This document shows positions 17,958-46,066 of a stretch of 64,000 nucleotides of DNA, piece by piece (the first letter of the stretch is position 1; each line of letters opens with the position of its first letter). Source of the stretch: Xanthomonas sacchari (lineage in GTDB: Bacteria > Pseudomonadota > Gammaproteobacteria > Xanthomonadales > Xanthomonadaceae); contig NZ_CP100647.1 in assembly GCF_024266585.1 (NCBI RefSeq), positions 3,577,001 through 3,641,000 of the forward strand, written 5' to 3'. The notes beneath the pieces are model-generated. The model ran no database searches and was not told where the DNA came from. It was given only the letters and a program-made list of their open reading frames with translations. The position numbers and the translations under genes were made by a program.

Positions 17958-19634
17958 GTGAATCAGTACGACCGCCGCATGCCCCTGCCCGTCCATCGTT
18001 CCCGGGCAAGCATGCGCCGGCGCGCCGGCCTGCTGTGCTGGATCGCCCTGCTGCTCGCTCCTGCCGCGATGGCGCAGGACTGGCACTACCGGGTGCGCCC
18101 CGGCGACACGCTGTGGGACCTGGGCCAGCGCTATCTGCGCCCGGGCATGGACTGGATGCGGCTGGGCCAGCACAACCAGGTGGCCGATCCGCACCGGCTG
18201 ACGCCGGGGGCGCGGCTGCGCTTTCCGATCGCCTGGCTGCGGGTGCAGCCGGTACCGGCACGGCTGGTCGCGCTGCGCGGCCAGATCAGCGTGCAGACCG
18301 CCGACAGCGCGACGCTGTCGGCGCAGGAGGGCATGCCGCTGCCGATCGGCAGCGCGCTGCAGACCGGCGCCGACGCCAGCGCCACCGTGCAGTTCGCCGA
18401 CGGCTCGCGCATGCAGGTGCGCGAGAACAGCCTGGTCCGCTTCGACCAGTTGCTCCGCTACGGCGCCACCGGCATGGTCGATACGCGGGTGCGGCTGGAG
18501 AAGGGCCGCACCAGCAACGACGTGATCCCCGCCAGCGGGCCTGCCTCGCGCTACATCATCCAGACCCCGAGCAGCACCAGCAGCGTGCGCGGCACCCGCT
18601 TCCGCGTCGGCGCCGGCGACGGTCACCAGCTCGCCGCCACCGAGGTGCTGCAGGGCGCGGTGCGGGTCGCCGGCGGCGGCGGCCAGCGCCTGCTGCAGCC
18701 GGGCGATGCGGCGCGGGTGGGCACCGGGACGGCGCCGCTGCCGGAACCGCTGCTGCCGGCACCGGTGCTGGACCTGGCGCGCAGCCGCTTGCAACACCCG
18801 CCCTACCTGCTGGCGTGGACGCCGCTGGCCGGCGCCAGCCGCTACCGCATCGAAGCGCTGGATGCGCAGCAGCGCGAGATCCTGCGCTACGCCCGCGAGA
18901 CCGAGGCAAGCGCACTGGTGCTGGACGACCTGCCGCCCGGGGACCTGCGGCTCCTGCTGCGCGGCATCGCCGCCACCGGCGTGGAAGGCGAAGACGCCGA
19001 GCAGGCGCTGCGGGTGTGGGCCACGCCGCTGCCGCCGCTGACCGTGCAACCGCTGCAGGATCAGCACCTGCGCATCGCGCGGCCGCGCTTCGAATGGACC
19101 CGCAATCCGCAGGCCAGCAGCAGCGTGCTGCAACTGGCGCGCGACGCGCAGTTCCAGGACCTGCTGCTCGACCAGGAGACCACGGCCACGCGCCTGCGCG
19201 CGCCGCAGCCGTTGCCGCCCGGCCGCTACTTCTGGCGCGTCGCCTCGCGCGACGCGCAGGGCCGCCAGGGTCCGTTCGGGCAGGCGTTGCGGCTGCAGCT
19301 CAGCGACGAGCCGGTCGATCCCGGCCTGGCGCCGGCGCAGGCCGAGCGCGGCACCCTCACCCTGCGCTGGCAGGCCGATCCCGCCGCGCAGCACTACCGG
19401 GTGCAGGTCGCGCGCGATCCCGACTTCACCCACCGCCTGCTCGAGCGCACGGTCGCCCAGCCGCAGGTCGCGCTGCCGCGGCCGCGGCGCGGCACCTGGT
19501 ACGTGCGCGTGCAGACGCTGGATGCCGACGGCGAGGCCGCGCCGTTCTCGGCGCCGCAGACCATCACCCTGCCCTGCCGCTACTGCAAGCTCGGTGCGGG
19601 CGGCGCGGCGGTCCTGCTGTGGCTGGCCCTGTGA
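17958..19634 (+). CDS. LysM-FecR domain periplasmic protein
   Basis: A 558-residue exported protein. After an N-terminal signal segment (RRRAGLLCWIALLLAPAAMA-Q) comes a LysM domain (WHYRVRPGDTLWDLGQRYL, about residues 42-90) that should bind peptidoglycan, then a FecR domain (about 120-235: GSALQTGADASATVQFADGS, TPSSTSSVRGTRFRVGAGDG), then repeated fibronectin-like beta modules (WTPLAGASRYRIEALD; FEWTRNPQASSSVLQLARD; WQADPAAQHYRVQVARDPDF). The GTG start at 17958 is uncertain; ATGs at 17979 and 18012 are alternatives. The stop overlaps the start of the CHASE2-GGDEF gene (GTGA), so the pair is probably one sensory unit. Confidence 0.85.
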   Translation: MNQYDRRMPLPVHRSRASMRRRAGLLCWIALLLAPAAMAQDWHYRVRPGDTLWDLGQRYLRPGMDWMRLGQHNQVADPHRLTPGARLRFPIAWLRVQPVPARLVALRGQISVQTADSATLSAQEGMPLPIGSALQTGADASATVQFADGSRMQVRENSLVRFDQLLRYGATGMVDTRVRLEKGRTSNDVIPASGPASRYIIQTPSSTSSVRGTRFRVGAGDGHQLAATEVLQGAVRVAGGGGQRLLQPGDAARVGTGTAPLPEPLLPAPVLDLARSRLQHPPYLLAWTPLAGASRYRIEALDAQQREILRYARETEASALVLDDLPPGDLRLLLRGIAATGVEGEDAEQALRVWATPLPPLTVQPLQDQHLRIARPRFEWTRNPQASSSVLQLARDAQFQDLLLDQETTATRLRAPQPLPPGRYFWRVASRDAQGRQGPFGQALRLQLSDEPVDPGLAPAQAERGTLTLRWQADPAAQHYRVQVARDPDFTHRLLERTVAQPQVALPRPRRGTWYVRVQTLDADGEAAPFSAPQTITLPCRYCKLGAGGAAVLLWLAL

Positions 19635-31703: not shown

Positions 31704-32114
31704 ATGACGCCCGCCCACGACGCCCTGCTCGAACGCCTCGATCGCCTGCTGCCGCAGACCCAATGCGGCCAGTGCGGGTTCGACGGCTGTCGTCCCTATG
31801 CCGAGGCGATGGCCGCCGGCACGGTGCAGGTGGACCGCTGCCCGCCCGGCGGCGACGCCGGTGCGCGCGCCCTGGCGCGGGTGCTCGGGGTCCCCGCCCT
31901 GCCCTACGACCGCCGCCGCGGCACGCACGCGCCGCCGCAGGTGGCATGGGTGGTCGAGGCCGACTGCATCGGCTGCACCAAGTGCATCCAGGCCTGCCCG
32001 GTGGACGCCATCGTCGGTGGCGCCAAGCACATGCACACGGTGCTGGCGCCCTTGTGCACCGGCTGTGCGCTGTGCCTGCCGGCCTGCCCGGTGGACTGCA
32101 TCGTCCTGCGCTGA
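31704..32114 (+). CDS. rnfB: RnfB-like [4Fe-4S] ferredoxin, stand-alone
   Basis: A 136-residue iron-sulfur protein. The N-terminal CGQCGFDGCRPYAE...RCPPGG (Cys21, 24, 29, 46) is the 4Fe-4S domain of RnfB, and two ferredoxin-type clusters follow: CIGCTKCIQACP (Cys88, 91, 94, 98) and CTGCALCLPACP (Cys118, 121, 124, 128). RnfB is part of the Rnf ion-pumping complex, but here it lacks the N-terminal membrane helix and no rnfA/C/D/G/E genes are nearby, so it is more likely a soluble electron carrier. It is preceded by about 130 bp without a gene. Confidence 0.88.
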   Translation: MTPAHDALLERLDRLLPQTQCGQCGFDGCRPYAEAMAAGTVQVDRCPPGGDAGARALARVLGVPALPYDRRRGTHAPPQVAWVVEADCIGCTKCIQACPVDAIVGGAKHMHTVLAPLCTGCALCLPACPVDCIVLR

Positions 32115-32205
32115 GACAGCCGCTGCGAGGCGGCCGCCACGGCGGGCGCATCCGGATCGGCGCCGGCCGCGTATGTGCTGGTGTCATCCCACCGGAGCGC
32201 CGTGC

Positions 32206-32994
32206 ATGCCGACGTCGACCGCCGCCTTCCCGTTCATCCGCGCGTCCTTGCCGCTGACGCTGGCCCTGGGCACCGCCGCCCTGGTCGCCGCCGCGCCGGC
32301 GCGGGCGATGCTGCACTACGAGGGCATCGCCTACGCCGCCGACGGCAAGCAGGTGCTGTACCGCGAAAGCCACTGGGTACGCGAGGATGGCGCGCGTCTG
32401 GTGCTGTACCAGTGCGCCGACGGCGCCGCGTTCGCGCGCAAGCGCGTGGACGACGGCAGCGCCGCGCCGGACTTCGAACTGGTCGATGCGCGCAGCGGCT
32501 ACCGCGAGGGCGTGCGCCGCAGCGGCAGCGGACGCGAGATGTTCAGCCAGGCCAAGGGCCAGGCCGAACGCCGCGCGCCGCTGCCGAAGAGCGACCAGGC
32601 GCAGGTGATCGACGCCGGTTTCGACGCCTACCTGCGCCAGCGCTGGGACAGCCTGGGCAGCGGCGGGCCGCAGCGCATCGCCTTCGTGCTGCCCAGCGAA
32701 CTGCGCACGCTCGACTTCCGCATCAGCCCCGGCCCGGCCGATGCCGAAGTGCAGCGCTACACGCTGAGCCTGGCCGCCTGGTACGGCACGCTGCTGCCCG
32801 ACCTCAGCGTCGCCTATGCGCGCAAGGACCGGCGTCTGCTCGAATTTCGCGGTGTCGGCAATATCCGCGACGCGCGTGGCCGCTACCCGAACGTGCGCAT
32901 CGACTTTCCCGAACGCCTGCGCGGCCAGGCCGACGCCGGCGCCTGGGAGCAGGCGCTGCAGCACCCCCTGGTCGCGCAATGCAGCGCGCGCTGA
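32206..32994 (+). CDS. Exported protein of unknown function
   Basis: A 262-residue protein with a signal peptide (ASLPLTLALGTAALVAAAPARA). The mature part starts MLHYEGIAYAADGKQVLYRE and continues with alternating beta strands (RLVLYQCADGAAFARKRV, RIAFVLPSELRTLDFRISPG, PNVRIDFPERLRG). I recognise no family. It may be periplasmic or outer-membrane associated. GGAGC precedes the ATG at a suitable distance, and codon use is like that of its neighbours. Confidence 0.8.
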   Translation: MPTSTAAFPFIRASLPLTLALGTAALVAAAPARAMLHYEGIAYAADGKQVLYRESHWVREDGARLVLYQCADGAAFARKRVDDGSAAPDFELVDARSGYREGVRRSGSGREMFSQAKGQAERRAPLPKSDQAQVIDAGFDAYLRQRWDSLGSGGPQRIAFVLPSELRTLDFRISPGPADAEVQRYTLSLAAWYGTLLPDLSVAYARKDRRLLEFRGVGNIRDARGRYPNVRIDFPERLRGQADAGAWEQALQHPLVAQCSAR

Positions 32995-33454: not shown

Positions 33455-33512
33455 GCGACGGCCACGGCGAAAGCCTGTAGCATCGCGCCGACCTTCGCCA
33501 CCGTCTCCCGGC

Positions 33513-34070
33513 ATGACCGAGTCGCCCGATCACGACGAAGCAGGACAATTGCTGGTCGCCACCGCCACCGGCGACAGCGCCGCGTTCGAACGCCTGTACC
33601 GCACCACCTCCTCGCGCCTGTTCGGCGTGTGCCTGCGCATCGTGCCGCAGCGCGGCGAAGCCGAGGACGTGCTGCAGGAAGTGTTCTCCTCGGTCTGGCG
33701 CAAGGCCGCGCAGTTCGACCCGCAGCGCGCGCGCGGCCTCACCTGGCTGACCATGATCGCCCGCAACAAGGCCATCGACTACCTCCGCGCACGCGCGCCG
33801 GCACGGCAGTCGGTGGCGCTGGACGACGCCGGCGAGCTGCAGGACGAAGGTAGCGATCCGCTCGCCGACACCGAGTGGCGGGTGGCCGGACGGCGCCTGG
33901 ACGTGTGCATGGGCGAACTGGAGCCGCCGCGCGGCGAGCTGATCCGCACCGCGTTCTTCGAAGGCATCACCTACGAGGAACTGGCCCAGCGCAGCGGCAC
34001 GCCGCTGGGCACGGTCAAGAGCTGGATCCGCCGCGGCCTGGCCAAACTCAAAGCGTGCCTGGAACGATGA
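33513..34070 (+). CDS. ECF-type RNA polymerase sigma factor
   Basis: A 185-residue sigma-70 family member with only regions 2 and 4. Region 2 (about residues 12-90): LYRTTSSRLFGVCLRIVPQR, GEAEDVLQEVFSSVWRKA, FDPQRARGLTWLTMIARNKA. Region 4 (about 130-183): ELIRTAFFEGITYEELAQRS, GTPLGTVKSWIRRGLAKLK. ECF factors direct transcription of small stress regulons. The stop overlaps the anti-sigma start (ATGA), the usual arrangement for a sigma/anti-sigma switch. The lipid genes downstream are the probable targets. Confidence 0.95.
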   Translation: MTESPDHDEAGQLLVATATGDSAAFERLYRTTSSRLFGVCLRIVPQRGEAEDVLQEVFSSVWRKAAQFDPQRARGLTWLTMIARNKAIDYLRARAPARQSVALDDAGELQDEGSDPLADTEWRVAGRRLDVCMGELEPPRGELIRTAFFEGITYEELAQRSGTPLGTVKSWIRRGLAKLKACLER

Positions 34071-34855
34071 ACGCCTCCGTGCCCGATCCGCAGGAAACCC
34101 CGCCGCCGCGCGACGTGCTGGCCGGCGAATACGTGCTGGGCGTGCTCGACGCGCAGGAGCGCCGCGCCGCCGAAGCGCGCATCGACAGCGACCGCGAATT
34201 CGCCGCGGCGGTGCTGCAATGGCAGCAGCACCTGATGCCGCTGGCCGACGAGATCGCCCCGGTGGCGGTGCCCGAACGCGTGTGGGTGCGCATCCGCGCC
34301 TCGCTGGGCCTGGATGCGCCGGCGCCGCGTGCGCGGCCGGCCGCACCCGGATTCTGGGACAGCGTGCGGACCTGGCGCTGGCTCAGCGCCGGCGGCTTCG
34401 CCACCGCCACCGCCTGCCTGCTGGCGCTGCTGCTGGCGCGCGCGCCGGTGCCGCCGCCGGCCACGCAGCCGCCGCCGGTCGCCACCACCACGCCCAAGCC
34501 CAGCGGCATCGCGATGACCTCCACGCTGATGCAGGACGACGGCAAGCCCGGCTACGTGGCGCTGATGGACGCCGACAAGCGCAGCATCACCCTCACCCCG
34601 CTGGGCGGCAGCCACGACGACGCACGTGTGCCCGAACTGTGGCTGATCCCGGCCGACGGCAAGGCGCGCTCGATGGGCGTGTTCGACGAGGCCAAGGCGC
34701 GCGTGGCGCGCATTCCCGATGCGCTGATGCCCTTGCTCCACGACGGCGCGGTGCTGGCGGTGACCATGGAGCCGCCCGGCGGCGCGCCCGGCGGCGTCGC
34801 CACCGGCCCGGTCGTGGCCAAGGGCGGCATCAGCACGCTGCAGCTGGCGCCGTAG
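34067..34855 (+). CDS. Anti-sigma factor, RskA/anti-sigma-K family
   Basis: A 262-residue membrane protein. The N-terminal 75 residues form the anti-sigma domain (AGEYVLGVLDAQERRAAEAR, LQWQQHLMPLADEIAPVAVP). A single membrane helix (LSAGGFATATACLLALLLAR, about 104-123) leads to a periplasmic RskA-type domain with KPGYVALMDADKRSITLTP, PELWLIPADGKARSMGVF, LAVTMEPPGGAPGG and a conserved final KGGISTLQLAP. It should hold the sigma factor at the membrane and release it on an envelope or oxidative signal. No cupin (ChrR-type) zinc domain is present. Confidence 0.92.
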   Translation: MNASVPDPQETPPPRDVLAGEYVLGVLDAQERRAAEARIDSDREFAAAVLQWQQHLMPLADEIAPVAVPERVWVRIRASLGLDAPAPRARPAAPGFWDSVRTWRWLSAGGFATATACLLALLLARAPVPPPATQPPPVATTTPKPSGIAMTSTLMQDDGKPGYVALMDADKRSITLTPLGGSHDDARVPELWLIPADGKARSMGVFDEAKARVARIPDALMPLLHDGAVLAVTMEPPGGAPGGVATGPVVAKGGISTLQLAP

Positions 34856-35172
34856 ACAAATCGCGATCGCGGCGGCCCTGCGCCGCCGCAGCGCTGGCGC
34901 GCGGCCGCGTCTCGTCGCCGTCGCCGGCCAACGCGTATTCACTTGCCCGCCACCGCGCCGCGGGCAGGATACGCGCGCTGTCATGCATGCGCGGTTTCGT
35001 GCGGTGTCGCGACACGATCGTTCCTGCGCCGCGCCGCCTCGGCGTGCGTGCAGGACGCGTGCGCCACGCGCGAAGGGCATGCACCACGCGCAGGGGACGG
35101 CGCGCGACGCGGGTGCATCCGTCTTCCGGTTTCGTCCGTATCGCTCCCCAAGTCCCCCAATGAGACGCGCTT
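34856..35172. other. Intergenic region before the lipid-modification operon
   Basis: These 317 bp hold no convincing gene. They contain a G+C-rich imperfect hairpin just after the anti-sigma stop (GCGGCGG...CCGCCGC around 34870-34890) and a perfect 12-bp palindrome GTGTCGCGACAC (35004-35015). A promoter for the desaturase operon should be here, but I cannot point to a clear ECF-type -35/-10 pair. Confidence 0.4.
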
Positions 35173-36150
35173 GTGTCGAGTCCCGTTCCGGAACGCCCCC
35201 ATTCCACGACGCCGCCCGCACAGCGCGGCCGCATCCTGCGCACCCTGCGTCGCTGGTTCGACACCAGCGCCGACGTGGAGCTCGACCCAGCGCGCGCCGA
35301 CCGCATCGACTGGCTGCGCGCCGCGCCCTACATCGGCCTGCACCTGGCCTGCCTGGGCGTGTTCTGGGTCGGCGTGTCGTGGTTCGCCGTCGGCATGGCG
35401 GTGGCGATGTACGCGGTGCGCATGTTCGCGCTCACCGGCTTCTATCACCGCTATTTCGCCCACCGCGCGTTCAAGACCTCGCGCCCGGTGCAGTTCCTGT
35501 TCGCCGCCGTCGGCGCCACCTGCGTGCAGCGCGGGCCGCTGTGGTGGGCCGCGCACCACCGCAACCACCATCGCCACACCGACACGCCGGCCGATCCGCA
35601 TTCGCCGCGCCAGCACGGCTTCTGGTGGAGCCATAGCGGCTGGTTCCTGACCCCGCGCGGCTTCCGCACCGACTGGGAGGCGATCCCGGACCTGCGCCGC
35701 TTCCCCGAACTGCGCTTCCTCGACCGCTTCGACCTGCTGCTGCCGGTGCTGCTGGCGCTGGCGCTGTTCCTGCTCGGCGGCTGGCTGCACCGCCACGTGC
35801 CGCAACTCGGCACCGACGGCCCGCAGTTGCTGGTGTGGGGCTTCTTCGTCTCCACCGTGGCGCTGTTCCATGCCACCTTCACCATCAACTCGCTGGCGCA
35901 TCGCTTCGGCAGCCGCCGCTTCGACACCCGCGACGACAGCCGCAACAACCTGTGGCTGGCGCTGCTGACCTTCGGCGAAGGCTGGCACAACAACCACCAT
36001 TTCTTTCCCGGCGCCGCGCGCCAGGGCTTCCGCTGGTGGGAACTGGACCTGACCTGGTACGGACTGACGGTGCTGTCGTGGACCGGCGTGATCCGCGAGC
36101 TCAAGCCGGTACCGGCCGGGCTGGTGCGCGCGCAGGCGCGTGCCCGATGA
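35173..36150 (+). CDS. Acyl-CoA/fatty-acid desaturase (delta-9 type)
   Basis: A 325-residue membrane di-iron enzyme that inserts a cis double bond in an acyl chain using O2. All three histidine boxes are present: HRYFAH, HRNHHRH and HNNHHFF, with the flanking FALTGFYHRYFAHRAFKT and FGEGWHNNHHFFPGAARQG and four hydrophobic segments. The start is a GTG at 35173 (SSPVPERPHST); no ATG is available upstream in frame. The stop overlaps the ATG of the FAD oxidoreductase gene, making this the first member of a tightly coupled lipid operon. Confidence 0.93.
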   Translation: MSSPVPERPHSTTPPAQRGRILRTLRRWFDTSADVELDPARADRIDWLRAAPYIGLHLACLGVFWVGVSWFAVGMAVAMYAVRMFALTGFYHRYFAHRAFKTSRPVQFLFAAVGATCVQRGPLWWAAHHRNHHRHTDTPADPHSPRQHGFWWSHSGWFLTPRGFRTDWEAIPDLRRFPELRFLDRFDLLLPVLLALALFLLGGWLHRHVPQLGTDGPQLLVWGFFVSTVALFHATFTINSLAHRFGSRRFDTRDDSRNNLWLALLTFGEGWHNNHHFFPGAARQGFRWWELDLTWYGLTVLSWTGVIRELKPVPAGLVRAQARAR

Positions 36151-37400
36151 GCCGGATCGCGGTGGTGGGCTCGGGGATCGCCGGCCTCGGCGCGGCGTGG
36201 CTGCTGTCGCAGCGCCACGAGGTGACGCTGTACGAAGCGGCCGACTATCTCGGCGGCCATACCCACACCCACGCGATCGAGCTGGACGGCGTGGAGTACG
36301 CGGTGGACAGCGGCTTCATCGTGTTCAATCCGCAGCACTACCCGCTGCTGAGCGCGCTGTTCGCGCGACTCGGGGTGGAGTCGCAGCCGACCACGATGAG
36401 CTTCTCGGTGCACGAGCAGCGCACCGGGCTGGAATACAACGCGGGCACCCTCGGCGGGCTGTTCTGCCAGCGCCGCAACCTGCTGTCGCCGCGCTTCTGG
36501 CGCATGCTGCGCGACCTGCGGAGGTTCTACCGGGAGGCGCCGCAGGTGCTGCACGACGCCACGCTGGCGTCGCTCACGCTCGGCGAATTCCTGCAGCGCC
36601 ACGGCTATTCCGAGGTGTTCCGCGACGCGCACCTGGTGCCGATGGCCTCGGCGTTGTGGTCCTCGCCCTCGCGGCAGATCCTCGACTTCCCGATGCGCCA
36701 GCTGATCGGCTTCATGGCCAACCACCACATGCTGCAGGTCAGCGGCCGCCCGCAGTGGCGGGTGGTGCACGGCGGCTCCAACAGCTACGTGCGCGCGCTG
36801 CGCGGCCGCTGGCGGGTGCGCGAACGGCTGGGCACGCCGGTGCGCGCGGTGCAGCGGACCGCACACGGCAGCGTCGCCGTCGCCTGCGACGCCGACACCC
36901 AGCAATACGACCATGCGGTGCTGGCCTGCCATGCCGACGACGCGCTGCGCCTGCTGGCCGATCCCAGCGACGCGGAAACCGCGATCCTCGGCGCGATCGG
37001 CTACCAGGACAACGAGACCGTGCTGCACACCGACGCGCGCGTGTTGCCGCGCGACCGCCGCGCCTGGGCCGCCTGGAACGCGCACGTGCCGGCCGATCCG
37101 GACGCGCCATGCACGGTCAGCTACTGGATGAACGCGCTGCAGTCGCTGCAGGCGCCGCAGCCGTTCATCGTCAGCCTCAACCGCAGCGATGCGATCGACC
37201 CGGCCAAGGTGCTGCGGCGCATGCGCTACCGGCACCCGCTGCAGACCCAGGCGTCGGTGGCGGCGCAGGCGCGCAGGGGCGAGATCCAGGGCCAGCGCAA
37301 CACCTGGTTCGCCGGCGCCGGCTGGGGCTTCGGCTTCCACGAGGACGGCCTGCGCAGCGCGGTCGACGTGGCCGCGGCGCTGGGGGTACCCTGGCCATGA
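36147..37400 (+). CDS. FAD/NAD-dependent oxidoreductase (amine-oxidase-like, COG2907 type)
   Basis: A 417-residue flavoprotein. The N-terminus is a dinucleotide-binding Rossmann motif (IAVVGSGIAGLGAAWLLSQ...VTLYEAADYLGGHTHT), followed by VDSGFIVFNPQHYPLLSAL and FHGGSN-like RVVHGGSNSYVRAL, and a C-terminal FAD motif WFAGAGWGFGFHEDGLRSA. Relatives are commonly encoded next to CFA synthase and DUF1365 and are thought to act on acyl chains; some CFA-like methylation systems use a flavoenzyme to reduce a methylene intermediate. The actual reaction here is unknown. It overlaps both neighbours by 4 bp. Confidence 0.9.
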   Translation: MSRIAVVGSGIAGLGAAWLLSQRHEVTLYEAADYLGGHTHTHAIELDGVEYAVDSGFIVFNPQHYPLLSALFARLGVESQPTTMSFSVHEQRTGLEYNAGTLGGLFCQRRNLLSPRFWRMLRDLRRFYREAPQVLHDATLASLTLGEFLQRHGYSEVFRDAHLVPMASALWSSPSRQILDFPMRQLIGFMANHHMLQVSGRPQWRVVHGGSNSYVRALRGRWRVRERLGTPVRAVQRTAHGSVAVACDADTQQYDHAVLACHADDALRLLADPSDAETAILGAIGYQDNETVLHTDARVLPRDRRAWAAWNAHVPADPDAPCTVSYWMNALQSLQAPQPFIVSLNRSDAIDPAKVLRRMRYRHPLQTQASVAAQARRGEIQGQRNTWFAGAGWGFGFHEDGLRSAVDVAAALGVPWP

Positions 37401-38266
37401 ACCTGATGCGCCGCACTGCCGTGTCCGCCCCGCCGGCTGGCGCCGTCTCGACAACGCCGGCGGCGGCGGGTACGACCCGGCAGGCCCTGCACAGCGCGGT
37501 CTACACCGGCTGGGTGCGCCATCGCCGCTACGCGCCCAAGGCGCTGGCGTTCCGCTATCCGCTGTTCCTGCTGTACCTGGACCTGGACGAACTGCAGCAG
37601 GTGTTCGCGCGGCGCTGGCTGTGGTCGGTGAACCGGCGCAACCTGGCCGAGTTCCGCCGCAGCGACTACCTGGGCGACCCCGCGCAGCCGCTGGACGAGG
37701 CGGTGCGCGACCGCGTGCAGCAGCACACCGGCGAACGCCCGCTCGGCCCGGTGCGCATGCTCACCCACCTGCGCTACTTCGGCCACTGCTTCAATCCGGT
37801 CACGTTCTACTACTGCCACGATGCGCAGCAGCGCCTGCACAGCATCGTCGCCGAGATCACCAACACGCCGTGGCGGCAGCGCCATGCCTACGTGCTGCCA
37901 CTGGCCGAGGCGCGCAGCCACGGCGCCACGCACGCCTGGCGCTTCGCCAAGCGCTTCCACGTCTCGCCGTTCATGGCGATGGCGCATACCTACGCCTGGC
38001 GCTTCAGCGAACCCGGCGCGCAGCTGCGCGTGCACATGGACGTGCTCGATCCCGCGCCGGCCACGCCCCGGCGGCGCTTCGACGCCACCCTGGTGCTGCA
38101 GCGCCGCGCCCTCGGCGGCGCCAGCCTGGCGCAGGCGCTGCTGCGCTATCCGGCGATGACCCTGCAAGTGATGGCCAAGATCCACTGGCAGGCGTTGCGG
38201 CTGTGGCTGCGCGGCAACCCGGTCCACGACCACCCCGACCCTCCCCTTCCGCGAGAACGCCGATGA
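37397..38266 (+). CDS. DUF1365 family protein
   Basis: A 289-residue protein of the DUF1365 (COG3496) family: SAVYTGWVRHRRYAPKALAF, PLFLLYLDLDEL, MLTHLRYFGHCFNPVTFYYC, IVAEITNTPWRQRHAYVLP, KRFHVSPFMAMAHTYAWRF. The conserved His/Cys-rich GHCFNPVTFYYC hints at metal or cofactor binding. Members almost always accompany CFA synthase and the FAD oxidoreductase; the biochemical role is not established. It starts in the stop codon of the previous gene and its own stop overlaps the CFA-synthase-like gene. Confidence 0.92.
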   Translation: MNLMRRTAVSAPPAGAVSTTPAAAGTTRQALHSAVYTGWVRHRRYAPKALAFRYPLFLLYLDLDELQQVFARRWLWSVNRRNLAEFRRSDYLGDPAQPLDEAVRDRVQQHTGERPLGPVRMLTHLRYFGHCFNPVTFYYCHDAQQRLHSIVAEITNTPWRQRHAYVLPLAEARSHGATHAWRFAKRFHVSPFMAMAHTYAWRFSEPGAQLRVHMDVLDPAPATPRRRFDATLVLQRRALGGASLAQALLRYPAMTLQVMAKIHWQALRLWLRGNPVHDHPDPPLPRERR

Positions 38267-39576
38267 ACGCTCCGCATGCGCCCTCTTCCGCCGCCGCGCT
38301 GGCCCCGGCCGCACCGCCGTTGCGCGGGCTCGACCGCCTGCTGCGGCAGCGCCTGCTCGCCACGCTGGACGGCCTGCGCGAAGGCCAGTTGCGCCTTGAG
38401 GAGGCCGGCACGCTGACCACGCTGGGCGAAGCCGCGGCCGGCGCCGACGCGCTGCAGGCGCATCTGCGCATCCATGATCCGCGCTTCTACCGCCAGGCCG
38501 CGCTCAACGGCAGCGTCGGCGTCGGCGAGGCCTACATGGACGGGCTGTGGGACTGCGACGACCTGGTCGCGTTGGTGCGCCTGCTGGTGCGCAACCGCGA
38601 CCGCCTGGACGCGATGGAGACCGGCCTGGCCCGGCTCGGCGGCCTGGCGATGCGCGGCCTGCACGCGTTCGCGCGCAACACCCGCGCCGGCAGCCGCCGC
38701 AACATCGCCGCGCACTACGACCTGGGCAACCCGCTGTTCGAATTGTTCCTGGACCGCAACCTGATGTACTCCTCGGCGATCTTCCGCGATGCCGACAGCG
38801 CATTGGGCGAGGCCGCACTGGAGCGCGCCGCCGAACGCAAGCTGCAGCGCATCTGCGCCAAGCTCGACCTGCAGCCGCACCACCACCTGGTCGAGATCGG
38901 CACCGGCTGGGGCGGTTTCGCCCTGCACGCGGCCAGGCACCACGGCTGCCGCGTCACCACCACCACGATCTCGCGCGAGCAGTACGAGCTGGCGCGGCAG
39001 CGCATCGCCGCCGCCGGCCTGTCCGACCGGGTCGAAGTGCTGCTGCGCGACTACCGCGACCTCGACGGCCGCTACGACCGCCTGGTCTCGATCGAGATGA
39101 TCGAGGCGATCGGCCACCAGTACCTGGACACCTACTTCGGCAAGGTCGGCAGCCTGCTCAAGGACGACGGCCAGGCGCTGATCCAGGCCATCACCATCGA
39201 GGACCACCGCTACGCGCAGGCGCTGAAGTCGGTGGACTTCATCAAGCGCCACATCTTCCCGGGCAGCTTCATTCCCTCGGTGGCGGCGATGACCGGCGCG
39301 ATCGCCCGCGCCAGCGACCTGCGCCTGTTCAACCTCGAAGACATCGGCCCCAGCTACGCGCTGACCCTGCGCGCCTGGCGCGAGCGCTTCATGGCCAGGC
39401 TGCCGCAGGTGCGCGCGCTCGGCTACGACGAACGCTTCATCCGCATGTGGGAGTTCTACCTGGCCTACTGCGAAGGCGGCTTCCTGGAGCGCTCGATCGG
39501 CGACGTGCACCTGTGGCTGAGCAAGCCGCGCGCGCGGCCGGCGCAGTTCGCCCCGGCGCTGGCGGGCGACGCATGA
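38263..39576 (+). CDS. Cyclopropane-fatty-acid-synthase-like SAM methyltransferase with altered active site
   Basis: A 437-residue protein of the Cfa family (E. coli Cfa has 382). It has the N-terminal lipid-binding part (GSVGVGEAYMDGLWDCDDLV), NIAAHYDLGNPLFELFLDRN, SAM motif I VEIGTGWGGFALHAARHHG, and SIEMIEAIGHQYLDTYFGKV. By eye alignment to E. coli Cfa (recalled sequence), Glu239 and Tyr317 are kept (MIEAIG, GPSYALTL), but Cys139 becomes Ser (MYSSAIF) and His266 becomes Gln (ALIQAITI). Those residues hold the bicarbonate base, so ring closure may be lost and a methylated or methylene product may result. Confidence 0.92.
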   Translation: MNAPHAPSSAAALAPAAPPLRGLDRLLRQRLLATLDGLREGQLRLEEAGTLTTLGEAAAGADALQAHLRIHDPRFYRQAALNGSVGVGEAYMDGLWDCDDLVALVRLLVRNRDRLDAMETGLARLGGLAMRGLHAFARNTRAGSRRNIAAHYDLGNPLFELFLDRNLMYSSAIFRDADSALGEAALERAAERKLQRICAKLDLQPHHHLVEIGTGWGGFALHAARHHGCRVTTTTISREQYELARQRIAAAGLSDRVEVLLRDYRDLDGRYDRLVSIEMIEAIGHQYLDTYFGKVGSLLKDDGQALIQAITIEDHRYAQALKSVDFIKRHIFPGSFIPSVAAMTGAIARASDLRLFNLEDIGPSYALTLRAWRERFMARLPQVRALGYDERFIRMWEFYLAYCEGGFLERSIGDVHLWLSKPRARPAQFAPALAGDA

Positions 39577-40118
39577 GCAACCTGCTCAACTATCTCGCCC
39601 TGCAGGGGCTGTGGCTGGCCGCGGTGGTCGGTGCCGCGCACGGGCTGGCCTGGGCCGGCCCGGCGGCGCTGGCGCTGTTCGCGCTGTACCAGTTGCGGCC
39701 GCGCCGCCGCGCCCGCGGCGATGCCACGTTGATGGCGCTGGCGCTGCCGTTGGGCGCCGGCGTGGATGCCGCGCTGCGCGCCGGCGACTGGGTGCGCTAC
39801 GCCGCCGCGCCGCCGGCGCCGTGGCCGCCGCTGTGGATCCTGGCGCTGTGGGCCGGCTTCGCGCTGACCTTCCAGCATTCGCTGGCCTGGGTGATGCGCC
39901 ATCCCTGGCGCGCGGCGCTGTTCGGCGCCAGCGCCGGCCCGCTGGGCTATGTGCTGGCCGCGCGCGGCTGGCAGGCGGTGACACTGACCGAACCGTTGCC
40001 GCAGGCGCTGATGGCGTTGGCGCTGGGCTGGGCCGCGGCGCTGACCCTGCTGAGCCTGGCGACGCGGCGCCTGATCGTCGCCACGCCGGCGCTGCCGGCA
40101 AGCGGAGCGGCGCGATGA
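39573..40118 (+). CDS. DUF2878 family membrane protein
   Basis: A 181-residue protein with about five membrane helices (LALQGLWLAAVVGAAHGLAW; DATLMALALPLGAGVDAAL; LWILALWAGFALTFQHSLAW; AALFGASAGPLGYVLAARG; ALMALALGWAAALTLLSLA). The order FQHSLAWV...GPLGYVLAARGW fits DUF2878, a family found in CFA-linked operons. No catalytic motif is visible; it may be an anchor or carrier for the modified lipid. It overlaps both neighbours by 4 bp (ATGA). Confidence 0.85.
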   Translation: MSNLLNYLALQGLWLAAVVGAAHGLAWAGPAALALFALYQLRPRRRARGDATLMALALPLGAGVDAALRAGDWVRYAAAPPAPWPPLWILALWAGFALTFQHSLAWVMRHPWRAALFGASAGPLGYVLAARGWQAVTLTEPLPQALMALALGWAAALTLLSLATRRLIVATPALPASGAAR

Positions 40119-40897
40119 ACGCCTGGCCGCTGCTGCATGTGGGGGTGTTCACCGTGCTGGTCATGCTCGCCGGCTGGGCCTGGCAGCGGCACACCCGCAA
40201 CGCCGGCGTGGTCGACGTGCTGTGGTCGGCGTGCATGGCGCTGACCGCGGTGTACTGCGCCTGGCGCGCCGACGGCGCGCTGTTGCCGCGCGTGCTGACC
40301 GCGGTGCTGGGCGGGCTGTGGGGCGCGCGCCTGGCCTGGCACCTGGGCGTGCGCGTGTTCGGCGATGCGCACGAGGACGGCCGCTATCGCGCCCTGCGCG
40401 AGCACTGGCACGGCGACCAGCGCAAGTTCCTGGCGTTCTTCCTCGGCCAGGCGCTGGTGGTGCTGGCGTTCGCGGTGCCGCTGTCGGTGGCCGCGCACAA
40501 CCCGCAGCCGCAGTGGAGCGTGTGGACCACCCTGGCGGTGGCGACCTGGCTGGTCGCGGTCGGCGGGGAAAGCCTGGCCGACCAGCAACTGGCCGCGTTC
40601 CGCGCCGACCCGGCGAACAAGGGCACCACCTGCCGCCGCGGCCTGTGGCGCTATTCGCGGCACCCGAACTACTTCTTCGAATTCGTGCATTGGTTCGCCT
40701 ACGTGTTCCTGGCGGTGGGCAGCGGCGCGCTGTGGGTCGGCGTGGCCGCGCTGGGACCGCTGCTGATGTTCGCCTTCCTGTACCGGGTCACCGGCATTCC
40801 CTACACCGAACAGCAGGCCCTGCGCTCGCGCGGCCGCGACTATGCCGACTACCAGCGCAGCACCAGCGCCTTCTTCCCCATGCCGCCGCGGCACTGA
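40115..40897 (+). CDS. DUF1295 / steroid 5-alpha-reductase-like membrane protein
   Basis: A 260-residue protein with about six membrane helices and the DUF1295 signatures RNAGVVDVLWSACMALTAVY, RLAWHLGVRVFGDAHEDGRY, GGESLADQQLAAFRADPANK, RRGLWRYSRHPNYFFEFVHW and TGIPYTEQQALRSRGRDYAD. The RHPNYFFE motif is shared with NADPH-dependent double-bond reductases and isoprenyl-Cys methyltransferases. In this operon a reductive step on the acyl chain is a reasonable guess. It overlaps the DUF2878 gene by 4 bp; the last gene starts 21 bp after its stop. Confidence 0.9.
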   Translation: MNAWPLLHVGVFTVLVMLAGWAWQRHTRNAGVVDVLWSACMALTAVYCAWRADGALLPRVLTAVLGGLWGARLAWHLGVRVFGDAHEDGRYRALREHWHGDQRKFLAFFLGQALVVLAFAVPLSVAAHNPQPQWSVWTTLAVATWLVAVGGESLADQQLAAFRADPANKGTTCRRGLWRYSRHPNYFFEFVHWFAYVFLAVGSGALWVGVAALGPLLMFAFLYRVTGIPYTEQQALRSRGRDYADYQRSTSAFFPMPPRH

Positions 40898-40918
40898 ACC
40901 CGCGCCAGGAGATCCGCC

Positions 40919-41995
40919 ATGTCCAGCACCTTCGCCACCTCTTCCCCGCCCGCCGTTCTGGCCGAGCCGCTGGCCACGCGCCTGGCCGAATCCGGCCTGC
41001 TGCCCGACGCCGTGCTGCGCGCGGCGATGCGCCGGCTGTGCGCGCAGCGCCTGCGCGACGCGCGCGCCGGCGGCGCCGACGCGGCCTGGGAGCGCCAGCG
41101 CCTGCTGATCGAATCGCTGCGCGAAAGCGCCATCGCCATCGAGACCGATGCGGCCAACCGCCAGCACTACGAAGTGCCGCCGCGCTTCTTCGAGCTGTGC
41201 CTGGGCAAGCGCCTGAAGTACAGCAGCTGCTACTGGGACGCGACCACGCCCGACCTGGACGCGGCCGAAGAGCGCATGCTGCAGCTGTACGCCGAACGCG
41301 CGCAGCTGCGCGACCGCCAGCGCATCCTAGAACTGGGCTGCGGCTGGGGCTCGCTGACCCTGTGGATGGCCGAACGGTTCCCCGGCGCGCGCATCACCGC
41401 GGTGTCCAACTCGCGGCCGCAGCGCGAGCACATCGAAGCGCAGTGCCGCGCGCGCGGGCTGAGCAACGTCAAGGTGATCACCCACGACGCCAACACCCTG
41501 ACCCTGCCGACCGAAAGCTACGACCGCGTGGTCTCGATCGAGATGTTCGAGCACATGCGCAACTACCGCGAACTGCTCAAGCGGGTCAGCCATTGGCTGG
41601 TGCCGGGCGGGCGGCTGTTCGTGCACATCTTCTGCCACCGCGACCTGGCCTATCCGTTCGAGGTGCAGGGCGAGGACAACTGGATGGGCCGGCACTTCTT
41701 CACCGGCGGGCTGATGCCGGCGGCCGACACCTTGCTCCAGTTCCAGGACGACCTGGCGATCGAACGCCGCTGGCTGCTGTCCGGCCAGCATTACGAGAAG
41801 ACCGCCAACGCCTGGCTGCACAACCAGGACCGCCACCGCGACACGCTGATGCCGGTGCTGCAGGCCACTTACGGCGCCGACGCCAAGATCTGGTGGCAAC
41901 GCTGGCGCATGTTCTGGATGGCCTGCGCGGAACTGTTCGGCTACGAACAGGGCCAGCAGTGGGGCGTGGCGCATTACCGGTTCGTCAGGCGCTGA
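40919..41995 (+). CDS. Second CFA-like class I SAM-dependent methyltransferase
   Basis: A 358-residue methyltransferase that resembles Cfa only in its C-terminal two thirds and lacks the usual N-terminal lipid-binding part. SAM motif I is ILELGCGWGSLTLWMAERFP; then VVSIEMFEHMRNYRELLKRV, LFVHIFCHRDLAYPFEVQGE, HYEKTANAWLHN and WRMFWMACAELFGYEQGQQW. Against E. coli Cfa it keeps Glu239 (MFEHM), His266 (LFVHIF) and Tyr317 (HYEKT) and has YSSCYW at the Cys139 region, with the Cys shifted by one. The AGGAG before the ATG is strong. It closes the operon. Confidence 0.9.
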   Translation: MSSTFATSSPPAVLAEPLATRLAESGLLPDAVLRAAMRRLCAQRLRDARAGGADAAWERQRLLIESLRESAIAIETDAANRQHYEVPPRFFELCLGKRLKYSSCYWDATTPDLDAAEERMLQLYAERAQLRDRQRILELGCGWGSLTLWMAERFPGARITAVSNSRPQREHIEAQCRARGLSNVKVITHDANTLTLPTESYDRVVSIEMFEHMRNYRELLKRVSHWLVPGGRLFVHIFCHRDLAYPFEVQGEDNWMGRHFFTGGLMPAADTLLQFQDDLAIERRWLLSGQHYEKTANAWLHNQDRHRDTLMPVLQATYGADAKIWWQRWRMFWMACAELFGYEQGQQWGVAHYRFVRR

Positions 41996-43277: not shown

Positions 43278-43501
43278 CGCAGGCTCCTGAGCGATCGGGG
43301 ACCGCCGTCGCGGCCGTGGACGACGGCCTGCGCCGCGGTCCCGACGCCGTGCCGACGTACGATTCCACTATCATGCGCGTCGCCGGCGCTGCCGGCACAC
43401 CACCCAACCGGTATCGCGATGGACCGTCTTCGTTCCGCCTGCAGCTTCGCCCTGACCCCGTCGCGCGCCGCGTGGCGCCTTTCCGCGCGCGCCCGTCCGC
43501 A

Positions 43502-46066
43502 ATGACCGACGCCGCGCCCTCCACTCCCGCGTCCGTCCCCGGCTGGCGCCGTGCGCTGCCGGTGCTGGCCAGCCTGGCGATCCTGGCCCTGGCGCTGCAT
43601 GCGCTGGCCACGGAGTTCAGCACCCACGGCTACAGCGCGATCCGTCACGCCTTCAACCAGCTGAGCCTCAGCCAGATCGTGCTGACCCTGTTGCTGGGGC
43701 TGAGCAGCTACGCCTGCCTGATCGGCTTCGACGCCATCGGCCTGCGCCGCAGCGGGCGCAAGCTGCACCCGATGCGGATCAGCATCACCGCGTTCCTGGC
43801 GCATGCGGTCGGACAGACCCTGGGCTTCGCCGCGCTGACCGGCGGCGCGGTGCGCCTGCGCGGCTACGGCCGGGTCGGCCTGAGCCTGGCCGAGATCGGC
43901 CAGGTGGTGTTGATGAGCACGCTCGGCTTCGTGTTCGGCGCCTGGCTGCTGCTGGCGCTGGCCCTGACCCTGGAGCCGGCGGCGGCGGCGCTGGCGCTGC
44001 CGGTCGGCGCCAGCGCGGTGCGCGCCATCGGCATCGCGCTGCTGGTGGGCTTCGCCACGATGCTGCTGCTCGCCGGCCGCGACGGCCGCACCCTGCGCTG
44101 GCGCAGCCATGAGCTGTGGCTGCCGGACCGGCGCACCACCCTCGGCGTGACCGCGCTGAGCGTGGTCGAGCTGGGCCTGGCCAGCGCCGCGTTCTACGTG
44201 TTGCTGCCCAACGAATCGGGAATCGAGTACATCGGCTTCGTCGGCCTGTATCTGGTCGCGGTGGTGGCCGGCCTGGTCTCGACCGTGCCGGCCGGCCTGG
44301 GCGTGTTCGAATGGAGCCTGCTCAAGCTGCTGCCCGGGGTGGCGCCGGCGGCGGTGCTGGCGGCGGCGCTGATCTACCGCATCACCTACTACGTGGTGCC
44401 GCTGCTGCTGTCGGTGCTGATGGCGTCGCTGTCCGGCCTGCGCCGGCCATTGGTCGCCAGTGCCGGCGGCGTGCGCGTGGCCTGGCGCACGCTGCGCCCG
44501 TGGCTGCCGCAGATCATCGCCCTGGCGGTGTTCGCGGTCGGCGCGGCGCTGGTCATCGACGGCACCCTGCCCACGCCCAAGCGCCGCCAGGACATGGCGC
44601 CGCTGTCGATCATGGAGACCTCGCACCTGCTGGCCAGCCTGGGCGGCGTGGTGCTGCTGCTGATCGGCCAGGGCCTGCAGCGGCGCAGCCATGCAGCCTG
44701 GGTGATGGCGATCGGCATCTGCGTGCTGCTGCCGCTGCCGGCCTGGCTGCGCGGCGGCCACGTCTCGGTGGCGCTGTCCTCGCTGGTGGTGGCGGTGGGC
44801 CTGTGGGGCGCGCGCCGCGAGTTCTACCGCGAGGGCGCGCTGCTCGACGAGGCCTGGTCGTGGCCGTGGCTGCGCAACCTCGGCCTGGTGCTGATCGCCA
44901 CGATCTGGCTGCTGTTCTTCGTCTACAGCCACGTGGAATACCAGAACGAGCTGTGGTGGGAGTTCGCCACCTCGGCCAATGCGCCGCGCGCGCTGCGCGC
45001 GGTGCTGCTGGTCAGCGTGGCGGTGGTGGTGTTCGGGCTGGCGCGGCTGCTGCACAGCACCCGCTCGCCGCTGGCGCCGGCCGATGGCGTGCAACTGGAC
45101 GCGCTGGCGCCGGTGCTGGCCGAGGCCACCGACACCCAGGCCTGCCTGGTGCTGACCGGCGACAAGGCCCTGCTGCAGGCCGAGGAGGGCCCCGGCTTCG
45201 TGATGATGCAGCGCTACGGCGGCTCGCTGGTGGCGATGGGCGACCCGGTCGGCGCGCCGGAGGTGGCCCGCGCGCTGATCTGGCGCTTCCGCGAGGAAGC
45301 CGACCGCATGGGCCTGCGCCCGGTGTTCTACCAGGTCGGCGAGCAGCACTGGCAGACCTACCTGGACCTGGGCCTGACCCTGGTCAAGCTCGGCGAGGAA
45401 GCGATGGTGTCGCTGGAGGGCTTCCATCTGGAGGGCCGCGACCGCGCCGACCTGCGCCAGGCCTGGAACCGCGGCAAGCGCAGCGGGCTGAGTTTCCGCA
45501 TCGTCGAAGCCGACGCGGTGGACGCGCTGATGCCGGTGCTGGCCGAGGTCTCGCAGCAATGGCTGGAGGACAAGGCCGGCGCCGAAAAGGGCTTCTCGCT
45601 GGGCAGCTTCGACCCGGCCTACCTGCGCCGCTTCCCGATCGCGCTGGTGGAGTTCGAGGGCAAGGTCGTGGCTTTCGCCAACCTGTGGCAGGCCCCGGCC
45701 GGCCACGAGCTGTCGGTGGACCTGATGCGGCACATCGCCGACGCCCCGAAGGGCACCATGGATTTCCTGTTCATCGAGCTGTTCCTGTGGGGCCGCGACC
45801 AGGGCTACAAGCGCTTCTCGCTGGGCATGGCGCCGCTGTCGGGCCTGGCCCAGCACCGCCTGGCCGGGCGCTGGAACCGTTTCGGCAACCTGATCGTGCG
45901 CCACGGCGAACGCTTCTACGGCTTCACCGGCCTGCGCCGCTTCAAGTCCAAGTTCGCCCCCACCTGGCGCACCCGCTACCTCGCCGCCCCCGGCGGCATG
46001 CACCTGCCGGCGGCCCTGCTGGATGTGACCCGGCTGATCTCGCTGGATCCGCGCAAGCCGGAGTGA
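43502..46066 (+). CDS. mprF: Bifunctional lysylphosphatidylglycerol flippase/synthetase MprF
   Basis: An 854-residue membrane protein, normal for MprF. About 14 helices in the first 530 residues form the flippase (LAHAVGQTLGFAALTGGAVR, VAGLVSTVPAGLGVFEWSLL), and the cytosolic C-terminal DUF2156 synthetase has LVLTGDKALLQAEEGPGFVM, GGSLVAMGDPVGAPEVARAL, WNRGKRSGLSFRIVEAD, and FLFIELFLWGRDQGYKRFSL. MprF moves lysine from Lys-tRNA to phosphatidylglycerol and flips the product outward, lowering envelope charge and raising resistance to cationic peptides. A virJ/acvB homologue is convergent downstream. Confidence 0.95.
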   Translation: MTDAAPSTPASVPGWRRALPVLASLAILALALHALATEFSTHGYSAIRHAFNQLSLSQIVLTLLLGLSSYACLIGFDAIGLRRSGRKLHPMRISITAFLAHAVGQTLGFAALTGGAVRLRGYGRVGLSLAEIGQVVLMSTLGFVFGAWLLLALALTLEPAAAALALPVGASAVRAIGIALLVGFATMLLLAGRDGRTLRWRSHELWLPDRRTTLGVTALSVVELGLASAAFYVLLPNESGIEYIGFVGLYLVAVVAGLVSTVPAGLGVFEWSLLKLLPGVAPAAVLAAALIYRITYYVVPLLLSVLMASLSGLRRPLVASAGGVRVAWRTLRPWLPQIIALAVFAVGAALVIDGTLPTPKRRQDMAPLSIMETSHLLASLGGVVLLLIGQGLQRRSHAAWVMAIGICVLLPLPAWLRGGHVSVALSSLVVAVGLWGARREFYREGALLDEAWSWPWLRNLGLVLIATIWLLFFVYSHVEYQNELWWEFATSANAPRALRAVLLVSVAVVVFGLARLLHSTRSPLAPADGVQLDALAPVLAEATDTQACLVLTGDKALLQAEEGPGFVMMQRYGGSLVAMGDPVGAPEVARALIWRFREEADRMGLRPVFYQVGEQHWQTYLDLGLTLVKLGEEAMVSLEGFHLEGRDRADLRQAWNRGKRSGLSFRIVEADAVDALMPVLAEVSQQWLEDKAGAEKGFSLGSFDPAYLRRFPIALVEFEGKVVAFANLWQAPAGHELSVDLMRHIADAPKGTMDFLFIELFLWGRDQGYKRFSLGMAPLSGLAQHRLAGRWNRFGNLIVRHGERFYGFTGLRRFKSKFAPTWRTRYLAAPGGMHLPAALLDVTRLISLDPRKPE

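What the first reader, a model, noticed from the sequence alone, without database searches (positions are those of the whole stretch)
33513..41995. ECF sigma/anti-sigma-linked nine-gene lipid-modification operon
Seen: sigma (33513), anti-sigma (34067), then desaturase, FAD oxidoreductase, DUF1365, Cfa-like methyltransferase, DUF2878 and DUF1295 genes joined by 4-bp ATGA-type overlaps, and a second Cfa-like methyltransferase 21 bp later. Known: FAD oxidoreductase, DUF1365 and Cfa genes are commonly grouped and, in several proteobacteria, controlled by an ECF factor with a ChrR-type (cupin) anti-sigma; related methylase/flavoenzyme/desaturase sets make furan or methyl-branched fatty acids. Inferred: here an RskA-type anti-sigma controls a pathway that desaturates, methylates and reduces or oxidises acyl chains. 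The DUF1365, DUF2878 and DUF1295 roles are open, and two methylases in one run suggest two different modifications.
Basis: partly seen in the sequence, partly recalled or inferred. Interest (0 to 1): 0.78.

Follow-up and report, generated by a model that had tools for sequence, protein, structure and literature searches.

The report
Operon for making furan membrane lipids
A stress-controlled set of bacterial genes very probably builds antioxidant furan rings into membrane lipids, and it points to three gene families as unrecognised parts of that pathway.

Summary
The best reading is a furan fatty acid (FuFA) operon. It holds homologues of all four proven enzymes: UfaD (FAD gene, 44-46% identical to Rhodopseudomonas homologues), UfaO (DUF1365, 33-36%), UfaM (first Cfa-like, 40-43%) and FufM (second Cfa-like, 48-49%). 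By sequence the first Cfa-like protein is no cyclopropane synthase: it groups with UfaM and has Gln for bicarbonate ligand His266, as in 30 of 30 methylases from DUF1365 loci and 0 of 16 others. In 4 of 4 Rhodopseudomonas loci the fufM homologue also sits directly behind a DUF1295 gene. In 200 genomes of the phylum, DUF1295, DUF2878 and close desaturase relatives occur with DUF1365 in 18 of 20, 26 of 27 and 7 of 7. The pathway is known. New are the one-operon layout, an RskA-type sigma pair in place of ECF11-ChrR, and DUF1295, DUF2878 and the desaturase as candidate parts. No product was measured.

The parts
32148..32173 (+). promoter-like site GCATCC-N16-CGTA before the secreted-protein gene
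   Evidence: 3 matches in the window, 0.13 expected; such a site in 17 of 17 same-genus loci where the gene lies in the cut (window included), and in L048 and L061, but not in L049 and L070
32206..32994 (+). probably secreted protein of 262 aa with an N-terminal hydrophobic stretch; no Pfam match (E up to 1) or NCBIfam match; probable regulon member
   Evidence: near the sigma gene in 16 same-genus loci and in L048, L049, L061; behind DUF1295 in L070
33083..33454 (+). small protein, weak DUF4345 match (20.4 bits, under the 26.5 cut-off); role unclear
33480..33505 (+). weaker promoter-like site GCATCG-N16-CGTC before the sigma gene
   Evidence: pattern GCATCS-N16-CGTM met in 7 of 17 same-genus loci, window included
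33513..34070 (+). ECF sigma factor (NF009186/PRK12534, 350 bits, cut-off 267)
34067..34855 (+). RskA-type anti-sigma factor, one hydrophobic stretch at residues 106-124
35115..35140 (+). promoter-like site GCATCC-N16-CGTA of the seven-gene operon
35173..36150 (+). acyl desaturase with three histidine boxes (HRYFAH, HRNHH, HNNHH); proposed supplier of the cis double bond
36147..37400 (+). UfaD-like flavin desaturase
   Evidence: 44-46% identity to five Rhodopseudomonas UfaD homologues
37397..38266 (+). UfaO-like DUF1365 protein, furan-ring oxygenase
   Evidence: 33-36% identity to five Rhodopseudomonas UfaO homologues
38263..39576 (+). UfaM-like acyl methylase (Glu236/Ala240/Gln266, E. coli Cfa numbering)
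39573..40118 (+). DUF2878 protein, FuFA-linked, role unknown
40115..40897 (+). DUF1295 membrane protein of the steroid 5-alpha-reductase/ICMT kind, FuFA-linked
40919..41995 (+). FufM-like methylase of the coclaurine N-methyltransferase branch

Best explanation
The seven genes from 35173 to 41995 make furan fatty acids on membrane phospholipids, probably the dimethyl form. Proposed order: (1) the desaturase makes a cis double bond in a phospholipid acyl chain (inferred); (2) the first Cfa-like protein, a UfaM, methylates it and shifts the double bond without closing a cyclopropane ring (inferred from homology and active site); (3) the FAD protein, a UfaD, makes the conjugated methyl-diene (homology); (4) DUF1365, a UfaO, uses O2 to close the furan ring (homology); (5) the second Cfa-like protein, a FufM, adds the second ring methyl (homology). 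DUF2878 and DUF1295 belong to the pathway by linkage, but their steps are unknown; DUF1295 may be a reductase acting on the furan or its oxidised product. The RskA-type membrane anti-sigma factor holds the ECF factor. On an envelope stress, perhaps singlet oxygen, the sigma is freed and transcribes the operon and the secreted-protein gene from GCATCC-N16-CGTA sites, and perhaps its own gene (inferred).
For: Homology to proven enzymes: PMC7380195 shows UfaM, UfaD, UfaO and FufM by deletion, expression and in vitro work; R. palustris has ufaD-ufaO-ufaM as neighbours (RPA2571-2569), the order seen here. A gammaproteobacterial (Halomonas) UfaM made the 11-methyl-12-ene chain in E. coli (PMC12089945, passages). 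Against Rhodopseudomonas loci: FAD 44-46%, DUF1365 33-36%, Cfa-like 1 40-43%, Cfa-like 2 48-49%, DUF1295 39-41%. Tree: 38 Cfa-like 1 rows (window and 37 loci) plus 5 UfaM form one group (support 99), apart from E. coli Cfa and 6 canonical Cfa; the 37 Cfa-like 2 rows (window and 36 loci) hold the 4 FufM among them. Active site: Glu236/Ala240/Gln266 in 38 of 38 Cfa-like 1 and 5 of 5 UfaM, Gly/His/His in 6 of 6 canonical Cfa; wider sample 30 of 30 from DUF1365 loci against 0 of 16 others (2 of the 30 assigned by genome position). Linkage: fufM-DUF1295 adjacency in 4 of 4 Rhodopseudomonas loci; in 200 genomes, window's own included, FufM with DUF1365 12 of 13, FufM with DUF1295 12 of 13 (8 within 200 bp), DUF1295 with DUF1365 18 of 20, DUF2878 with DUF1365 26 of 27, close desaturase with DUF1365 7 of 7, all within 3 kb. 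Regulation: the strict site lies before the desaturase in 19 of 20 loci with the sigma gene in the cut and 2 of 15 without; one of those two genomes does carry the sigma gene, outside the cut. Both same-genus genomes without a DUF2878 match (G009, G013) also lack the two operon methylases (E 1e-6) and the sigma gene (E 1e-25). Outside bacteria: Chlamydomonas CFA1, CFA2, a DUF1365 and a DUF1295 gene are all listed as needing SAK1 for singlet-oxygen induction (PMC4067076, passages).
Against: No lipid was measured, and no report of FuFA in this group was found ('furan fatty acid' with 'Xanthomonas', 2 papers, neither on such lipids by title and abstract start). UfaO identity is only about one third. 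The tree is the quick one: the careful search had not finished, and the program warns of long branches meeting. In R. sphaeroides ufaM, ufaD and ufaO put back together sufficed for the furan, and fufM added alone sufficed for the dimethyl form (PMC7380195), so DUF1295, DUF2878 and the desaturase may be accessory or may change the product; whether R. sphaeroides has such genes of its own was not checked. E. coli carrying Halomonas ufaM also showed cyclic fatty acids (PMC12089945, passages; the host has its own Cfa), so some ring closure by a UfaM is not excluded. DUF2878 overlaps little with DUF1295 (6 of 20) and FufM (5 of 13) in the 200 genomes. G055 has the site but no sigma homologue at E 1e-25, and L048 has the sigma gene with a degenerate site. 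The site before the sigma gene is not uniform. Test values ignore relatedness.
Confidence: 0.8

Rival explanations
1. The pathway stops at, or turns away from, the known furan: it makes methyl-branched or conjugated methyl-diene chains, or a furan on another chain (for example iso-branched), with DUF1295 reducing one of the double bonds.
For: DUF1295 matches Steroid_dh (30.5 bits, cut-off 22.6) and has a near-invariant GLW-x3-RHPNYF-x5-W stretch over 58 rows; that this recalls NADPH-dependent ene reductases is from memory. The operon has its own desaturase, so the chain may differ from cis-vaccenate.
Against: A DUF1365 gene is part of the seven-gene form, and UfaO closes the ring (PMC7380195). 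FufM acted on the furan with no significant methylation of 18:1 (PMC7380195), so its presence argues for a furan product.
Confidence: 0.1
2. The second Cfa-like protein is an N-methyltransferase for a lipid amine and has nothing to do with furan rings.
For: Its nearest solved structures are coclaurine and related plant N-methyltransferases (259 bits) and not Cfa (88 bits).
Against: Rhodopseudomonas FufM homologues fall among the same group at 48-49% identity, and Arabidopsis AT4G33110, 37.87% identical to FufM, was named a FufM in PMC10940516 (passages). 12 of 13 genomes with this protein also have DUF1365. It keeps His266 and Tyr317 in 37 of 37 rows, where the one coclaurine enzyme aligned has Glu and Phe.
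Confidence: 0.07
3. The sigma pair is a neighbour only; the operon is driven by something else.
For: The operon exists without the sigma gene in many loci of the order. No transcript data are at hand.
Against: Strict site before the desaturase in 19 of 20 loci with the sigma gene in the cut and 2 of 15 without; a site of the same pattern before the secreted-protein gene; joint absence of sigma gene and operon methylases in G009 and G013.
Confidence: 0.12
4. A cyclopropane or 10-methyl (tuberculostearate-like) operon.
For: CMAS domains in both methylases; flavoenzyme next to a methylase.
Against: Gln266 and Ala240 in place of the Cfa residues. The flavoenzyme is of the amine-oxidase kind; the FAD_binding_4 kind that I recall for BfaA is not among its matches. 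DUF1365 is unexplained by this reading.
Confidence: 0.03

Closest known systems
Furan fatty acid pathway of Rhodobacter sphaeroides and Rhodopseudomonas palustris (UfaM, UfaD, UfaO, FufM; PMC7380195)
   Same: Homologues of all four enzymes, the ufaD-ufaO-ufaM order, and a DUF1295 gene directly before fufM in Rhodopseudomonas.
   Different: All in one operon with an added desaturase and DUF2878. In Rhodopseudomonas fufM-DUF1295 lies far from the ufa genes or on another contig. Different sigma system.
ECF11 sigma-ChrR singlet-oxygen regulon (PMC6852236, PMC5507510, passages)
   Same: An ECF sigma factor with a partner anti-sigma controls furan fatty acid genes.
   Different: The anti-sigma here has RskA_C and one hydrophobic stretch, and no ChrR-type family is among its matches; the site is GCATCC-N16-CGTA.
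SigK-RskA type pairs (ECF19, name recalled)
   Same: RskA_C anti-sigma; the SigK subfamily model scores 138.5 bits; the site resembles the SigK promoter CCATCC/CCGAAT, which I recall.
   Different: Best model is PRK12534, and the SigK model is under its 226-bit cut-off.
Aeromonas operon NTF2-like, SDR, FAD, DUF1365, cfa, DUF2878 (PMC10012899, passages)
   Same: FAD-DUF1365-cfa-DUF2878 core.
   Different: No DUF1295 or second methylase is named in the passages seen; the authors suggest only fatty acid metabolism.
Halomonas sp. YLGW01 ufa genes (PMC12089945, passages)
   Same: Three consecutive ufa genes in a gammaproteobacterium; the UfaM product was seen in E. coli.
   Different: No FufM, DUF1295 or sigma pair is described in the passages seen.
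Chlamydomonas singlet-oxygen genes CFA1, CFA2, DUF1365, DUF1295 (PMC4067076, passages)
   Same: The same four protein kinds, induced by singlet oxygen and dependent on SAK1.
   Different: Eukaryote; furan lipids not shown in the passages seen; the sequences were not compared here.

Membership tests
Furan fatty acid biosynthesis cluster | UfaD-UfaO-UfaM homologues together | tested here: met
Furan fatty acid biosynthesis cluster | Methylase of the UfaM kind and not Cfa, by tree and active site | tested here: met
   (quick tree only)
Furan fatty acid biosynthesis cluster | FufM homologue for the dimethyl form | tested here: met
Furan fatty acid biosynthesis cluster | Furan acyl chains in the membrane that need these genes | not testable with these tools
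   needs GC-MS
Canonical cyclopropane fatty acid synthase | Bicarbonate ligands Glu239, His266, Tyr317 (PMC11387697, passages) | tested here: not met
   Cfa-like 1 has Glu, Gln, Tyr
ECF11-ChrR regulon | ChrR-type (cupin) anti-sigma factor | tested here: not met
   RskA_C is the one Pfam match; two NCBIfam anti-sigma models, neither ChrR nor over its cut-off
SigK-RskA type | RskA_C anti-sigma gene overlapping the end of the sigma gene | tested here: met
SigK-RskA type | Sigma factor reaches the SigK model's cut-off | tested here: not met
   138.5 of 226 bits
Steroid 5-alpha-reductase-like reductase (DUF1295) | NADPH-dependent reduction of an enone or similar | not testable with these tools

The most novel reading that the evidence does not exclude
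The operon would then build the antioxidant lipid and also clear its used form. The same role would hold in the other bacteria, and perhaps in Chlamydomonas, where DUF1295 goes with DUF1365 or FufM.
Probability: 0.2. Interest if true: 0.78.

Novelty: new variant of a known kind. Interest (0 to 1): 0.56.

Why it matters
Furan fatty acids are membrane antioxidants and proposed second messengers. Their pathway was worked out in two alphaproteobacteria, with one gammaproteobacterial UfaM tested in E. coli. This locus places a full dimethyl-furan gene set in one operon under a probable stress sigma factor with an anti-sigma factor of another kind. It turns three gene families (DUF1295, DUF2878 and a desaturase branch) into testable pathway parts, and a three-residue signature (Glu236/Ala240/Gln266) into a way to tell furan-pathway methylases from cyclopropane synthases, as which they may be annotated. 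The similar set in Chlamydomonas makes the question of algal furan lipids testable too.

Tried and rejected
Cyclopropane operon: rejected on the active-site residues and tree. 10-methyl (BfaA/BfaB-like, recalled) pathway: rejected on the kind of flavoenzyme and the presence of DUF1365. ECF11-ChrR: rejected on the anti-sigma domain. Wider regulon from the bare pattern: 13 matches in the own genome against 1 for the reversed pattern, and 10 to 18 in five others against 1 to 4 reversed. Several of these sites recur in sister genomes at places away from this locus; I did not look at what lies behind them, so I claim no wider regulon. Structure predictions of DUF1295 and DUF2878 were not possible. 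Thresholds chosen after seeing the tables: FufM-like at 294.6 bits and up, the next being 101.9; close desaturase at 390 bits and up. Left out by the second: matches of 266-288 bits in three genomes of one family (G222, G175, G099), which do not lie within 10 kb of a DUF1365 gene, and matches of about 150 bits or less in 10 further genomes. Rows dropped: of 26 DUF2878 hits outside the genus, three (G056, the C7 hit of G057, G058) were not fetched as long regions; pieces under 230 residues were dropped, only the 30 best of 51 DUF1365 loci were at hand, and two of those (L303, L305) gave no methylase in the cut.


Full report
Check of the observation. The nine genes lie as stated, with six 4-bp ATGA overlaps, a 317-bp gap before the desaturase and a 21-bp gap before the last gene. 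Pfam gives each name over its curated cut-off. The window is G000:C1:3577001-3641000 of an unnamed 4.9-Mb genome.

Conservation. A DUF2878 search hit 42 of 60 genomes: the window's own, 17 of 19 relatives of the same genus, and 24 of 40 others. I fetched 40 long regions: the 17 same-genus loci and 23 others. All 17 have the order desaturase, FAD, DUF1365, Cfa-like 1, DUF2878, DUF1295, Cfa-like 2. Of the 23 others, 11 in five families have all seven in that order; the other 12 are cut by contig ends, lack one or more genes in the cut, or are rearranged. These loci were picked through DUF2878, so they show order, not how common the operon is.

What the enzymes are. PMC7380195 (parts 1, 2 and 4 of 7 and passages read) shows that UfaM methylates cis-vaccenate in phospholipid, UfaD (a flavin-binding desaturase) makes the conjugated methyl-diene, UfaO (a DUF1365 protein) closes the furan ring with O2, and FufM adds a second methyl; in R. 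palustris the three ufa genes are RPA2571-2569 and fufM is RPA0924. I reached named Rhodopseudomonas genomes, searched five of them and one Rhodoblastus, and read the loci. A FAD-DUF1365-CMAS triple is in all five Rhodopseudomonas genomes; the Rhodoblastus one has no DUF1365. A FufM-like protein was found in four of the five, each time directly behind a DUF1295 gene. The window's proteins match: FAD 44-46%, DUF1365 33-36%, Cfa-like 1 40-43%, Cfa-like 2 48-49%, DUF1295 39-41%; desaturase, DUF2878, the secreted protein, sigma and anti-sigma have no match in those stretches. These strains are not CGA009, so identity with the RPA genes is inferred from kinship and layout.

Not a cyclopropane synthase. 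On a quick tree of 92 rows, 38 Cfa-like 1 (window included) and 5 UfaM form one group with support 99, apart from E. coli Cfa, 4 Cfa of the window's family and 2 of Rhodopseudomonas; the 37 Cfa-like 2 rows (window included) have the 4 FufM among them (the careful search did not finish). E. coli Cfa binds bicarbonate through Glu239, His266 and Tyr317 (PMC11387697, passages). All 38 Cfa-like 1 and 5 UfaM keep Glu239 and Tyr317 but have Gln266, Ala240 and Glu236; 6 of 6 canonical Cfa have His, His, Gly. In the phylum sample, 28 of 28 such methylases from fetched loci holding DUF1365 (the window's own is one) have Glu236/Ala240/Gln266, and 16 of 18 others have Gly/His/His. The two exceptions come from G211 and G202, next to DUF1365 genes that lay outside the fetched cut, so the split is 30 of 30 against 0 of 16. 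Loss of the bicarbonate histidine fits a methylase that does not close the ring; that mechanism is my inference. Against it, E. coli carrying a Halomonas ufaM showed the 11-methyl-12-ene chain but cyclic fatty acids too (PMC12089945, passages; the host has its own Cfa). Among six genomes searched for CMAS, the window's own has the two operon methylases and otherwise only a 41-bit match; G009 and G013 have a canonical Cfa and no operon methylase; G010 has both kinds.

Linkage in the phylum. 200 genomes (window's own included) were searched five times. FufM-like proteins are in 13, DUF1365 in 51, DUF1295 in 20, DUF2878 in 27, close desaturase relatives in 7. Co-occurrence: FufM with DUF1365 12 of 13, 8 within 10 kb; FufM with DUF1295 12 of 13, 8 within 200 bp; DUF1295 with DUF1365 18 of 20, 9 within 10 kb; DUF2878 with DUF1365 26 of 27, 21 within 10 kb; desaturase with DUF1365 7 of 7, all within 3 kb. 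From those distances DUF1295 is within 10 kb of DUF1365 or FufM in 12 of 20. Against: 2 DUF1295 genomes, 1 FufM genome and 1 DUF2878 genome have no DUF1365; DUF2878 goes with DUF1295 in only 6 of 20 and with FufM in 5 of 13; and the test values ignore kinship. In PMC4067076 (passages) CFA1, CFA2, a DUF1365 and a DUF1295 gene of Chlamydomonas are on the list of genes that need SAK1 for singlet-oxygen induction. In PMC10940516 (passages) the Arabidopsis FufM homologue is AT4G33110. PMC8491031 (passages) says that furan modification in Chlamydomonas was under study. No paper in the library holds both 'DUF1295' and 'furan', and two hold 'DUF2878' (passages of both seen, without a molecular function).

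Control. Aligned upstream stretches show a block GCATCC-N16-CGTA before the desaturase. Of 35 loci with a desaturase gene (window included), 19 of 20 with the sigma gene in the cut have the strict site within 250 bp upstream and 2 of 15 without it do; random 280-bp stretches of the same loci hold the pattern (spacer 15-17) in 1.8% (149 of 8200). One of the two is G010, whose sigma gene lies about 5.6 kb upstream, outside my cut; the other, G055, has no sigma homologue at E 1e-25. Of 16 genomes searched, the sigma is in 5, all with the operon; it is in neither G009 nor G013, nor in nine genomes that carry operon genes without it in the cut. A site of the same pattern stands before the secreted-protein gene in 17 of 17 same-genus loci where that gene lies in the cut (window included) and in L048 and L061, but not in L049 and L070. 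A weaker GCATCG-N16-CGTC stands before the sigma gene; the pattern is met in 7 of 17 same-genus loci, window included. In the window the strict pattern occurs 3 times, 0.13 expected; the third, at 19500, was not examined. The anti-sigma is RskA-like with one hydrophobic stretch, not ChrR-like.

Open parts. DUF1295 matches Steroid_dh (30.5 bits, cut-off 22.6) and ICMT below cut-off, and its most conserved stretch over 58 rows is GLW-x3-RHPNYF-x5-W. R. sphaeroides made dimethyl furan with fufM alone added (PMC7380195), so no added DUF1295 is needed for that step there. A role on the oxidised product is my most novel reading and is untested. DUF2878 lies near DUF1365 so often that it is probably part of the system, step unknown. 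The desaturase has three histidine boxes and probably supplies the double bond.

Verdict. A known pathway in a new arrangement, with several new candidate parts and a different sigma system: a new variant of a known kind.

Noticed in passing
window 43460-46066: A lysylphosphatidylglycerol synthase-like gene (LPG_synthase_C 325 bits) follows the operon region, so a second membrane-lipid modification gene lies nearby; no link was tested.
   Followed up: partly
window 32206-32994: Probably secreted protein without a Pfam match that shares the promoter-like site and travels with the sigma gene; possibly a periplasmic partner of the system.
   Followed up: partly
window 19500-19525, minus strand: A third exact match to the promoter pattern, far from the operon; its downstream gene was not examined.
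   Followed up: no
L057 and L066: In one family of the order the set is rearranged, with Cfa-like 2 and DUF1295 before FAD and DUF2878 set apart.
   Followed up: no
window 31704-32114: Small ferredoxin-like protein (FeS and Fer4 domains) upstream of the region; no link to the operon tested.
   Followed up: no
L213-L225 (own genome): Thirteen exact promoter-pattern matches in the genome; several recur in sister genomes at sites away from this locus and could be coding coincidences or further targets.
   Followed up: no
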